Origin: Candidatus Cloacimonadota bacterium
GTDB taxonomy: Bacteria > Cloacimonadota > Cloacimonadia > JGIOTU-2
DNA: 64,000 bases
Reading direction: 5' to 3'
Assembly (NCBI GenBank): GCA_016932035.1
Contig: JAFGDR010000031.1
Coordinates: forward strand, 62,001-126,000
In this document: one piece after another, positions 30,928 through 38,557 of the stretch
Layout of the letters: every line of letters begins with the position of its first letter
Position numbering within the stretch: the stretch's first letter is position 1
Translations under genes and position numbers: made by a program
Notes under the pieces: model-generated
Databases searched by the model: none
Seen by the model: only the letters and a program-made list of their open reading frames with translations
Told to the model about the DNA's origin: nothing

Positions 30928-31164
30928 ATGCCGTTGAAAAATAAGGGATATTATAAGGAAGTATTCGAGGGACTCGGCCTTGTGGCGCAACTTGGACTCA
31001 CAATGGTTATCAATATTCTCATATTCTTTTTTATCGGACTTTTCATTGATAGAAAATGGCATTTAAAGGGATTCCCGATCATTATTGGTATTTTTTTAGG
31101 CATTGTTACCGGTGCGATGTCCTGCTATCGAATGATAAAAAAAAATGAAAATTCTGACAAGTAG
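30928..31164 (+). CDS. AtpZ/AtpI-like F1Fo accessory membrane protein
   Basis: 78 residues with two transmembrane helices (GLVAQLGLTMVINILIFFFI and FPIIIGIFLGIVTGAMSCY). It matches the AtpZ-type family found at the head of ATP synthase operons, implicated in Mg2+ handling or c-ring assembly. It starts 3 bases after the bactofilin gene, and its end overlaps the next gene by 20 bases. Confidence 0.85.
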   Translation: MPLKNKGYYKEVFEGLGLVAQLGLTMVINILIFFFIGLFIDRKWHLKGFPIIIGIFLGIVTGAMSCYRMIKKNENSDK

Positions 31165-31531
31165 CTTCCGCAAATACGTTTATCACATTCTCGGGCTAAT
31201 TTTCTTGACAGAGATTCCGGCACTTTTGCTTATCACAAAAAACTTGAAGCTCTGGCTGGGATATTTTCTAGGCTCGATCCTTTCAGGTTTAAATTTTTAT
31301 TTTCAGGCAAAGGGTGCAGAAAATCGAGTTGGGCTCAGCCCTTCCGGTGCAAAAGTTAGTATTTTCAAGAATTTCTATATCAGGTACCTGACACTTCTCG
31401 TATTTGTGGTCGTTCTTGTAAAATTTCTTAAGGTCAATATATTTTCACTTCTTGCCGGCTTACTCATAGCTCCCATCATCGTACTCGTCGATGGAATTTT
31501 TGCCGGGAAAAATAATCAAATATCAGAATAA
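31145..31531 (+). CDS. AtpI-like ATP synthase assembly protein
   Basis: 128 residues with four predicted membrane helices. Position between atpZ and the a subunit, length and topology fit the ATP synthase I protein, a chaperone for c-ring assembly. Sequence conservation in this family is low, so the assignment depends largely on context. It overlaps the 3' end of atpZ. Confidence 0.78.
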   Translation: MKILTSSFRKYVYHILGLIFLTEIPALLLITKNLKLWLGYFLGSILSGLNFYFQAKGAENRVGLSPSGAKVSIFKNFYIRYLTLLVFVVVLVKFLKVNIFSLLAGLLIAPIIVLVDGIFAGKNNQISE

Positions 31532-31542
31532 ACGCAAAGTAC

Positions 31543-32373
31543 ATGAAAAAAAAGTCCAAGAAATTATTGGTAATCGTTCTCACAATACTCATTATTGAGG
31601 GGCTTATTTCGGTTGGGCTAAATTACCAGCTTCAAATTGGATTCGATGAAGGGAAGCTTATCATTCGAAATGTTGCGACCGATCTTTCCATACAGGATAG
31701 GATAACGCACGAATTTCAGCACTATCATATGGTAAAGTTGTTTGGGAAATTCATGATCAACTGGAGTGTTCTTCGCGTCATCCTTTTCGTCGATCTTTTT
31801 TTGATACTTTTTGCTATTCTTGTAAGAAGAAAAATGTCTCTCATCCCTGGTAAACTGCAAATTATAGCTGAAATGATCTACTCATTTTTCTATAGTCTTG
31901 TCGTTGAAACGATTGGGGAAAAGAAGAAATATTTCACACCGTATATTTTTACAATTTTTATATTTATCTGGCTTTGTAATATCATCGGTTTGATCCCGAT
32001 ACCAGGTAATCTTGAGCCGACAAGAAATCTCAATGTTCCGCTTGGAATGGGAATCATGGCTTTGAGTGTTGTTCATTTTTCTGCAATAAAAGCAAAGGGA
32101 CTTGGACGTTATCTAAAGGAATACACCGAACCGCTTCCTTTCATGACACCCCTGAATGTTGTTAGTGAACTTTCAAATGTTATTTCTCTCTCCTTCCGTC
32201 TTTTTGGAAACATACTGGGAGGAGCAATTATCATCTTGGTCGTTTCAAATCTGACACGATATATCCTTATACCGGTTGGCTTGAATTTATTCTTCGGTTT
32301 GTTCATCGGAACAGTACAGGCATTCGTCTTCACGATGCTTATACTGTCATATACCGCAGTAGCGATAAAATAA
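31543..32373 (+). CDS. atpB: ATP synthase subunit a
   Basis: 276 residues, about six membrane helices. The conserved C-terminal region includes ELSNVISLSFRLFGNILGGA, carrying the essential stator Arg that faces the c-ring, and GTVQAFVFTMLILSYTAVAI. Subunit a provides the ion half-channels. The N-terminal amphipathic segment (about 35-60) is normal. It is encoded 3 bases before the three-hairpin c subunit. Confidence 0.96.
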   Translation: MKKKSKKLLVIVLTILIIEGLISVGLNYQLQIGFDEGKLIIRNVATDLSIQDRITHEFQHYHMVKLFGKFMINWSVLRVILFVDLFLILFAILVRRKMSLIPGKLQIIAEMIYSFFYSLVVETIGEKKKYFTPYIFTIFIFIWLCNIIGLIPIPGNLEPTRNLNVPLGMGIMALSVVHFSAIKAKGLGRYLKEYTEPLPFMTPLNVVSELSNVISLSFRLFGNILGGAIIILVVSNLTRYILIPVGLNLFFGLFIGTVQAFVFTMLILSYTAVAIK

Positions 32374-32376
32374 ATT

Positions 32377-33108
32377 ATGTTTGATACAGTAAGCTTGATA
32401 CATGTTGCAGCATATATAGGTGCCGGACTCGCCGTGGGCATCTCATCCATCGGAGCAGGTGTTGGTGAGGGTTATATTGCCGGCAATGCTAATTATGCTA
32501 TGATGAAACAGCCCAAGTCAAATGATGTGCTTCTACGCACAATGCTCATTGCCCAAGCAATAACTGAGACAGGAGCCATTTTCGCTCTCGTTATTGCTAT
32601 GCTCCTTCTTTTTGGGGGTTCCATTGTTCCTGATGCAGGATGGCAGAGAATAGCATCACTCTTTGGTGCAGGGCTTGTCATGGGAGCTGGATGCCTGGGA
32701 ACGGGGCTTGGTATTGGTTATGCAGGAGGGCAGGCATGCCAGGGCATTGGCAGACAACCCAGAGAAGCAAAGACCTTAACAGCAAATATGCTTATTGGAC
32801 AGGCATTGTCAGAAACCTCAGCCATCTTTGCCCTTGTTATTGCCATGCTTCTTTTATATTCAACACCGGACGGAAACAGTGTGGTCAAATCTTTTGCATT
32901 TATCGGTGCGGCATTTGCAATGGGATTCGGCACGTTCGGTCCAGGATTTGGAATCGGTATCGTTGCAGGAAAAACGGTTGATGGGATCAGCAGATTCCCC
33001 AAACAGTCCTCAGTTCTTCTTCGAACCATGTTCGTAGGTGCAGCGGTATCAGAATCAACATCAATATATGCATTAGTTATTGCATTTTTATTATTATTCG
33101 TAACGTAA
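32377..33108 (+). CDS. atpE: ATP synthase subunit c, three fused hairpins
   Basis: 243 residues made of three tandem c-subunit hairpins (about 1-80, 90-162, 168-243). Ordinary c subunits have one hairpin of about 80 residues. Each unit keeps the ion-binding carboxylate on its outer helix: E64 (ITETG), E146 (LSETS) and E226 (VSEST), each followed by Thr or Ser. Unit 1 also has a Glu on the inner helix (GVGEG, E31), the two-carboxylate Na+ motif known from Fusobacterium; units 2 and 3 have Ile there (I113, I193). It is followed by a separate one-hairpin c gene. A mixed rotor ring, Na+-coupled, is the likely product (inference). Confidence 0.93.
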   Translation: MFDTVSLIHVAAYIGAGLAVGISSIGAGVGEGYIAGNANYAMMKQPKSNDVLLRTMLIAQAITETGAIFALVIAMLLLFGGSIVPDAGWQRIASLFGAGLVMGAGCLGTGLGIGYAGGQACQGIGRQPREAKTLTANMLIGQALSETSAIFALVIAMLLLYSTPDGNSVVKSFAFIGAAFAMGFGTFGPGFGIGIVAGKTVDGISRFPKQSSVLLRTMFVGAAVSESTSIYALVIAFLLLFVT

Positions 33109-33128
33109 TTTGATCCTTAGGAGGATAC

Positions 33129-33368
33129 ATGGAAAGTGAAATCATTAGAGCAGCAGCTTTGTTAGGTGCCGGCATTTGTATGGGATTCGGTGCTATCGGA
33201 CCTGGAATCGGTGAAGGATTCACCGCAGGAAAAGCTTGTGAAGGTATTGCACGCTCTCCTGAAAACGCAGGATTACTCACAAGAACAATGCTTGTTGGCC
33301 AGGCAGTATCGGAATCTACCGGTATCTACTCGCTCGTTATATCCCTGTTGCTTATTTTCGCAGTGTAA
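33129..33368 (+). CDS. atpE: ATP synthase subunit c, single hairpin, two-carboxylate type
   Basis: 79 residues, one hairpin, with AGGAGG before the ATG. The inner helix has GPGIGEG (E29) and the outer helix has QAVSESTGIYSLVI (E62, S63, T64, Y67). Apart from Glu in place of Gln, this matches the Na+-binding signature of Ilyobacter, and it matches the E/E arrangement described for Fusobacterium nucleatum. It should therefore bind Na+ (inference). The loop ARSPEN replaces the usual RQP. The strong ribosome site suggests more copies per ring than the triple-hairpin subunit. Confidence 0.95.
   Translation: MESEIIRAAALLGAGICMGFGAIGPGIGEGFTAGKACEGIARSPENAGLLTRTMLVGQAVSESTGIYSLVISLLLIFAV

Positions 33369-36171: not shown

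Positions 36172-38556
<2,385 letters not shown>

Positions 38557-38557
<1 letters not shown>

What the first reader, a model, noticed from the sequence alone, without database searches (positions are those of the whole stretch)
32377..33368. Three-hairpin c subunit beside a one-hairpin c subunit in an F-type ATP synthase
The 243-residue subunit has three tandem hairpins, all with the outer-helix Glu (E64, E146, E226). Hairpin 1 has the two-carboxylate site (E31), hairpins 2 and 3 have Ile there. The next gene is a single hairpin with the two-carboxylate Na+ site (E29/E62). Triple-hairpin c subunits are known in some archaeal A-type enzymes, and Acetobacterium mixes a double hairpin with single ones. 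A triple with every carboxylate kept, in a full F-type operon, implies a heteromeric ring with two kinds of ion site.
Basis: partly seen in the sequence, partly recalled or inferred. Interest (0 to 1): 0.75.

Follow-up and report, generated by a model that had tools for sequence, protein, structure and literature searches.

The report
Mixed-subunit sodium ATP synthase rotor
This bacterium's only ATP synthase probably turns on a ring built from two different parts, an ordinary one-unit piece and a fused three-unit piece, and such mixed rings with two to six fused units prove to be widespread in anaerobic bacteria, which could change how many ions each ATP costs.

Summary
In detail: a 243-aa three-hairpin c subunit (c3) lies directly before a 79-aa single-hairpin c (c1) in a complete F-type operon, and these are the genome's only c genes. 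The pair is conserved: 62 of 70 Cloacimonadota genomes with c hits outside one V-type family carry exactly four hairpins, and fused subunits of 2-6 hairpins beside a single c occur in Desulfobacterota, Planctomycetota, Latescibacterota and Firmicutes. The nearest solved structure is c1 of the Acetobacterium woodii hybrid rotor (Z 19.2), so this is a new variant of a known kind. 'Every carboxylate kept' is true here but exceptional (6 of 41 c3); hairpin 2 is normally Gln. Na+ sites are shared between neighbouring hairpins. On that basis the ends of c3 complete full two-carboxylate Na+ sites with flanking c1, while the two internal sites lack the inner ligand and the Tyr. c1 has the stronger ribosome site in 56 of 66 pairs. 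Best model: a Na+ ring of mostly c1 with a minority of c3; E146 and E226 are odd sites, perhaps H+-binding. Ring composition and ion are not shown. The 'heteromeric ring' reading is supported indirectly; 'two kinds of site' is plausible but unproven.

The parts
32377..33108 (+). c3: three-hairpin F-type c subunit, 243 aa
   Evidence: three PF00137 stretches; NCBIfam F0F1 subunit C 171.4 bits, over cut-off; AF2 model; best solved structure 4bem_J
32401..32616 (+). c3 hairpin 1 (residues 9-80): E31 inner helix, E64 outer helix, own T65 G66 F69
   Evidence: two carboxylates, Phe at the position of I. tartaricus Tyr70
32647..32862 (+). c3 hairpin 2 (residues 91-162): I113, E146, own T147 S148 F151; E146 is Gln in most relatives
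32887..33102 (+). c3 hairpin 3 (residues 171-242): I193, E226, own S227 T228 Y231 (half-site offered to the next subunit)
   Evidence: S-T-Y in 41 of 41 phylum c3
33119..33124 (+). AGGAGG ribosome-binding site of c1; the c3 start, 3 nt after the atpB stop, has none
   Evidence: best duplex energy -10.2 versus -0.2 kcal/mol
33129..33368 (+). c1: single-hairpin c subunit, 79 aa, two-carboxylate Na+ motif E29, E62 S63 T64 Y67
31543..32373 (+). atpB, stator subunit a; essential Arg is R219
   Evidence: Pfam ATP-synt_A 169.7 bits; Arg in 80 of 80 aligned a subunits
30928..31531 (+). ATPase_gene1-like gene (30928-31164) and atpI (31145-31531), candidate c-ring assembly factors
   Evidence: Pfam PF09527 46.4 bits, PF03899 31.8 bits
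33423..38976 (+). rest of the F-type operon: atpF, atpH, atpA, atpG, atpD, atpC

Best explanation
The pair encodes a hybrid rotor ring of a Na+-driven F1Fo-ATP synthase, of the kind known from Acetobacterium woodii but with a three-hairpin fused subunit. The ring is mostly c1 with a minority of c3, perhaps one copy (inferred). An ion site belongs to two neighbouring hairpins: hairpin i gives the inner-helix Glu/Gln and the outer-helix Glu, and the hairpin before it gives the Val backbone, the Ser/Thr and the Tyr. So the interfaces c1-c1, c1-to-hairpin 1 and hairpin 3-to-c1 are full two-carboxylate Na+ sites. The two interfaces inside c3 (hairpin 1-to-2 and 2-to-3) lack the inner ligand and the Tyr. 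In most relatives the first of these has lost its carboxylate, so c3 carries fewer ions than hairpins and lowers the Na+ cost per turn. In the window species both internal carboxylates, E146 and E226, remain; the likeliest reading is that they pass subunit a as protonated or otherwise neutral sites. Shown by sequence: gene pair, residues, conservation, predicted fold. Inferred: incorporation, copy number, ion identity, effect on ion/ATP ratio.
For: Pair conserved in the phylum and in other phyla with a single c following the fused one. c3 is F-type; its best PDB sequence and fold match is A. woodii c1, 37% identity, Z 19.2, rmsd 1.5 over 164 residues; that ring is 9 c2/3 to 1 c1 (PMC8904574). 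Half-site geometry is published for I. tartaricus and E. hirae NtpK (PMC2359735). In fused c subunits a complete internal site goes with Tyr in the preceding hairpin: 11 of 13 complete sites against 1 of 160 others; outside Cloacimonadota with 20 more loci 15 of 17 against 4 of 105. c1 has the stronger ribosome site in 56 of 66 pairs, median difference 3.4 kcal/mol. Purifying selection on c3 and c1. c1 carries the F. nucleatum site residues (PMC3692424). The genome also encodes Rnf, NqrD/NqrB-like subunits and a sodium-type pyrophosphatase.
Against: No protein-level data: incorporation and copy number of c3 are unknown, and a ring of c3 alone would satisfy the half-site rule as well. The Tyr association is not phylogenetically secure: independent pairs gave 2-3 in agreement, 0 against, 4-5 uninformative, not significant. 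Ribosome-site counts come from related genomes. A two-carboxylate site alone does not prove Na+ coupling: the B. pseudomallei N-ATPase ring has one and is H+-selective (PMC5376962), though it has Thr-Met where c1 has Ser-Thr.
Confidence: 0.75

Rival explanations
1. c3 and c1 build alternative rings: c3 alone (3n hairpins) or c1 alone, chosen by expression, rather than one mixed ring.
For: The half-site rule is also met by c3 following c3: hairpin 1 E31/E64 would use hairpin 3 S227 T228 Y231. Both genes keep intact frames in most genomes.
Against: Always adjacent in one operon with no terminator-like site found between them, and unequal ribosome sites fit a fixed unequal mixture. In A. woodii such genes give one mixed ring (PMC8904574). 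In relatives with carboxylates left in only one c3 hairpin a c3-only ring would hold very few sites.
Confidence: 0.12
2. c3 is not a rotor part in practice: poorly translated, or an assembly or structural protein, and the working ring is c1 alone.
For: No ribosome site before c3 in the window; many c3 hairpins lack the carboxylate.
Against: dN/dS about 0.10 in all three hairpins; glycine-rich packing motif and six-helix ring-like fold kept; pair kept across the phylum and in other phyla.
Confidence: 0.08
3. All sites, including E146 and E226, bind Na+ (Thr and backbone ligands suffice), so there is one kind of site and the rotor is simply a Na+ ring with some linked hairpins. This is a variant of the best explanation, not exclusive of the mixed ring.
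For: Thr65 and Thr147 could replace the Ser ligand; every carboxylate is present in the window.
Against: The inner ligand is Ile and the Tyr is Phe at both internal interfaces; ProAD's published rule calls a site with any missing Na+ ligand H+-specific (PMC11738941); elsewhere in the phylum the same carboxylates drift to Gln.
Confidence: 0.2
4. c3 is an imported archaeal/V-type K subunit.
For: Triple K subunits exist in Methanocaldococcus (PMC2359735).
Against: NCBIfam F-type subunit C models score 171, 169 and 159 bits, over their cut-offs; V-type K models 70 bits, far under theirs. Hairpins group with bacterial multi-hairpin and single F-type c subunits.
Confidence: 0.02

Closest known systems
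Acetobacterium woodii Na+ F1Fo-ATP synthase hybrid (F/V) rotor, c1 + c2/c3 (PDB 4BEM); likewise Clostridium aceticum c1 + c2
   Same: F-type operon with a fused multi-hairpin c before a single-hairpin c; first hairpin keeps the carboxylate with Phe in place of Tyr; single c has a full Na+ site; anaerobe with Rnf. Best sequence and fold match of c3 (PMC7911925; PMC8904574).
   Different: Two hairpins there, three here (2-6 in relatives). Inner ligand Gln there, Glu here. Last hairpin Gln there, Glu here. A. woodii-type hairpins group with Firmicutes c subunits in the hairpin tree, hinting at separate fusions, weakly supported.
Fusobacterium nucleatum c11 ring, two-carboxylate Na+ site (PDB 3ZK1/3ZK2)
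   Same: c1 has Glu/Glu-Ser-Thr..Tyr at the same positions.
   Different: Homomeric ring of single hairpins.
Multi-hairpin K subunits of archaeal/V-type ATPases (E. hirae NtpK, M. jannaschii triple, M. kandleri 13 hairpins)
   Same: Fused hairpins, often with lost sites; same fold (2bl2 Z 14.5; PMC2359735).
   Different: Those are A/V-type by operon and sequence; c3 is F-type with a single-hairpin c beside it.
Hybrid rotors surveyed by Brandt and Mueller 2015 and multi-hairpin c/K variants in ProAD 2025
   Same: The general idea that F-type operons can hold one fused and one single c is in print (cited in PMC7911925; PMC11738941).
   Different: The 2015 survey is not in the library, so whether it lists three or more hairpins could not be checked. 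Papers found here do not describe the Cloacimonadota or Desulfobacterota triples to sextuples.

Membership tests
F-type (F1Fo) ATP synthase | Complete operon with a, c, b, delta, alpha, gamma, beta, epsilon and F-type profiles | tested here: met
   no V-type subunit D in the genome
F-type (F1Fo) ATP synthase | Stator arginine in subunit a | tested here: met
   R219, conserved in 80 of 80
Hybrid rotor (A. woodii kind) | One fused multi-hairpin and one single-hairpin c gene in the same F-type operon | tested here: met
Hybrid rotor (A. woodii kind) | Both subunits present in one ring | not testable with these tools
   Needs mass spectrometry or cryo-EM
Hybrid rotor (A. woodii kind) | Fused subunit carries fewer carboxylates than hairpins (a feature of the prototype rather than a definition) | tested here: not met
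   All three kept in the window (E64, E146, E226); met in 35 of 41 c3 of the phylum. So the window is filed as a variant of the kind, and site loss is not claimed for it
Two-carboxylate Na+ c subunit (F. nucleatum kind) | Glu32, Glu65, Ser66, Thr67, Tyr70 equivalents in one single hairpin | tested here: met
   c1 E29 E62 S63 T64 Y67; across 43 c1: E41/Q2, E43, S42, T42, Y42
Two-carboxylate Na+ c subunit (F. nucleatum kind) | Na+ is the coupling ion | not testable with these tools
   Biochemistry needed; motif alone is not decisive (PMC5376962)
A/V-type K subunit | Scores over K-subunit model cut-offs and sits in an A/V-type operon | tested here: not met
   About 70 bits against cut-offs of 188-211; operon is F-type
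N-ATPase | Gene order beta-epsilon-X-X-a-c-(b/delta)-alpha-gamma | tested here: not met
   Order here is I-a-c3-c1-b-delta-alpha-gamma-beta-epsilon; definition from PMC11738941

The most novel reading that the evidence does not exclude
A single F-type rotor that carries two chemically different ion sites: Na+ sites at subunit boundaries and proton sites at the two internal interfaces of c3, so that one turn moves a fixed mixture of Na+ and H+.
Probability: 0.25. Interest if true: 0.88.

Novelty: new variant of a known kind. Interest (0 to 1): 0.64.

Why it matters
The number of ion sites per ring sets how many ions an ATP costs, which decides whether life at the thermodynamic limit can make ATP. 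Known hybrid rotors come from a few acetogens. Here the arrangement belongs to the only rotary ATPase found in about 40 of 42 well-sequenced Cloacimonadota genomes outside one V-type family, and it appears with two to six fused hairpins in several other anaerobic phyla, including cultured sulfate reducers. That turns a curiosity into a class in which nature has varied the number of dead sites in steps, so ring make-up, ion/ATP ratio and whether one rotor can use two ions become directly testable. The half-site pattern gives a sequence rule for predicting which interfaces are live.

Tried and rejected
Assembly artefact or repeat collapse: rejected, same architecture in dozens of genomes and isolates. 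Pseudogene: rejected by dN/dS. V-type import: rejected. N-ATPase: wrong gene order. Internal promoter, terminator or RNA structure that might set the c3:c1 ratio: counts and folding energies at background. Co-change of subunit a with E146: no column of subunit a separates E146 carriers from Gln carriers. A phylogenetically independent test of the half-site rule: right direction, too few pairs. Hairpin tree for the order of fusions: 72 columns, weakly resolved. Literature: no held paper describes these subunits; Brandt and Mueller 2015 and Matthies 2014 are not held.

Full report
WHAT IS THERE. The window holds a complete F-type ATP synthase operon on the + strand: an ATPase_gene1-like gene (30928), atpI (31145), atpB (31543), c3 (32377-33108), c1 (33129-33368), atpF, atpH, atpA, atpG, atpD, atpC (38557). 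c3 has 243 residues and three PF00137 stretches; c1 has 79 residues and one. They are the only c genes in the 2.44 Mb, 95% complete genome, which has no V-type subunit D. The stated residues are correct: E31/E64, I113/E146, I193/E226 in c3; E29/E62 in c1.

CONSERVATION IN THE PHYLUM. Relatives with 75-93% c3 identity carry record titles of Candidatus Cloacimonadota or Cloacimonas. Of 124 genomes of the phylum, 70 outside one family (f3) have c-subunit hits, and 62 of these show exactly four hairpins. In the loci fetched and read, these are a three-hairpin gene followed by a single one. Most exceptions are contig ends or broken frames; one genome has five hits. Family f3 uses a V-type enzyme: subunit D in 32 of 32 good genomes, against 2 of 42 elsewhere. 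So the pair serves the only rotary ATPase found in about 40 of 42 good genomes outside f3.

THE CARBOXYLATES. In 43 distinct c1 the site is nearly invariant: inner Glu 41/Gln 2, outer Glu 43, Ser 42, Thr 42, Tyr 42. These are the Na+ ligands of the F. nucleatum ring (Glu32, Glu65, Ser66, Thr67, Tyr70; PMC3692424). c3 is looser. Hairpin 1 outer residue: Glu 31, Gln 9, Gly 1; inner: Glu 26, otherwise Ser, Val or Thr. Hairpin 2 outer: Gln 35, Glu 6. Hairpin 3 outer: Glu 36, Gln 5; inner always Ile or Val; S-T..Y in all 41. Thus 'every carboxylate kept' holds in 6 of 41. On a c3 tree the hairpin 2 carboxylate needs 3 changes, and relatives of the window's clade as well as out-groups have Gln, so E146 is probably a regain (the direction is inferred from where Gln lies).

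BEYOND THE PHYLUM. One scan of 84,980 species genomes found the same arrangement in Desulfobacterota (three, four, five and six hairpins; isolates Desulfacinum infernum, Dethiosulfatarculus sandiegensis, Desulfoferrobacter suflitae), Latescibacterota, Planctomycetota including a Brocadiaceae genome, and Firmicutes. In nearly every complete locus atpB lies directly upstream and a single c, then usually atpF, downstream. In the order of Desulfacinum about 11 of 35 genomes carry a fused c; in 294 sampled Planctomycetota it is a minority. Many carriers outside Cloacimonadota also hold an ordinary c gene elsewhere. A further 20 loci show the same picture.

CLOSEST STRUCTURE. The best solved relative of c3 by sequence (97.4 bits) and fold (Z 19.2, rmsd 1.5, 164 residues) is chain J of 4BEM, the double-hairpin c1 of the A. 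woodii hybrid rotor; it is also the top sequence hit of the single c1. The AlphaFold2 model of c3 is confident (pLDDT 93.4, pTM 0.88). A. woodii and C. aceticum c1 keep the carboxylate in hairpin 1 and have Gln in hairpin 2 (PMC7911925), and the A. woodii ring is 9 c2/3 to 1 c1 (PMC8904574). In a tree of single hairpins (72 columns, weak) the first hairpins of Cloacimonadota, Desulfobacterota, Latescibacterota and Planctomycetota group together, while A. woodii-type hairpins group with Firmicutes c subunits, which hints at separate fusions.

HOW IT PROBABLY WORKS. A Na+ site joins two neighbours. In E. hirae NtpK, where hairpins are fused, Glu139 and Gln110 lie in hairpin 2 while Leu61, Thr64 and Tyr68 lie in hairpin 1 (residues from PMC2359735; the split into hairpins agrees with the structural alignment of 2bl2 to the c3 model): site i is completed by hairpin i-1. 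Fused c subunits follow this. Where an internal hairpin has both inner and outer ligands, the hairpin before it has Tyr in 11 of 13 cases; where it does not, in 1 of 160. The Tyr of a hairpin's own helix is a far weaker predictor. Outside Cloacimonadota with more loci the counts are 15 of 17 and 4 of 105. The sequences are related and the independent-pairs test had only 2-3 informative pairs, all in the expected direction, so this is strong as a pattern and weak as a statistical proof. Applied to the window: c1-to-hairpin 1 and hairpin 3-to-c1 are full two-carboxylate Na+ sites; hairpin 1-to-2 (I113/E146 with T65 G66 F69) and hairpin 2-to-3 (I193/E226 with T147 S148 F151) lack the inner ligand and the Tyr. 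The subunit ends are kept fit to abut c1 (or another c3); the interior is relaxed.

EXPRESSION. The c3 start lies 3 nt after the atpB stop without a ribosome site (-0.2 kcal/mol); c1 has AGGAGG (-10.2). Over 66 pairs c1 is the stronger in 56 (median difference 3.4 kcal/mol). Genomes are related, so the P value there is not to be taken at face value, but the trend crosses phyla. It fits a ring with c1 in excess.

ION. c1's ligands, together with Rnf, an NqrD over its model cut-off and a sodium-type pyrophosphatase in the same genome, point to Na+ coupling; published Ace Lake Cloacimonadota genomes were read the same way (PMC8542988). Two carboxylates alone are not decisive (PMC5376962). E146 and E226 could carry H+, bind Na+ weakly or be idle; sequence cannot decide.

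VERDICT. A real, conserved and functional gene pair; a new variant (three fused F-type hairpins; in this species no carboxylate lost) of the hybrid-rotor kind, and one of a broad set with 2-6 hairpins that I did not find described in the papers held. The mixed ring is likely but unproven; the mixed-ion rotor is possible.

Noticed in passing
L102, L106 (six hairpins), L093 (five), L099/L100/L089/L108/L109 (four): F-type c subunits with four to six fused hairpins, mostly with only the first and sometimes the last hairpin live, each followed by a single Na+-type c.
   Followed up: partly
window 31543-32373 (subunit a residue 212): Asn seven residues before the stator Arg, where 67 of 80 a subunits of multi-hairpin operons have Lys; not shared by the other E146 carriers.
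   Followed up: partly
window 37019-38557: Subunit beta ends in a lysine- and glutamate-rich tail of about 35 residues.
   Followed up: no
L098 616-1179 (also L009): In one relative (record titled Ca. Cloacimonas sp. 4484_140) the c3 reading frame is broken into two overlapping frames; real mutation or assembly error unknown.
   Followed up: no
Cloacimonadota family f3 (G001-G049): This family has a V-type ATPase (subunit D in 32 of 32 good genomes) where the rest of the phylum has the F-type hybrid-rotor enzyme.
   Followed up: partly
L115-L117, L120, L143, L144, L146, L147 (Planctomycetota): Here the last fused hairpin has Phe and Gln too, so only the first hairpin keeps a carboxylate; the half-site offered to the next c1 is incomplete, unlike most other groups.
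   Followed up: partly
G107 contig C35:4365-4544: A fifth c-type hairpin (129-aa frame) in a genome that also has the triple and single c; possibly a second ATPase.
   Followed up: no
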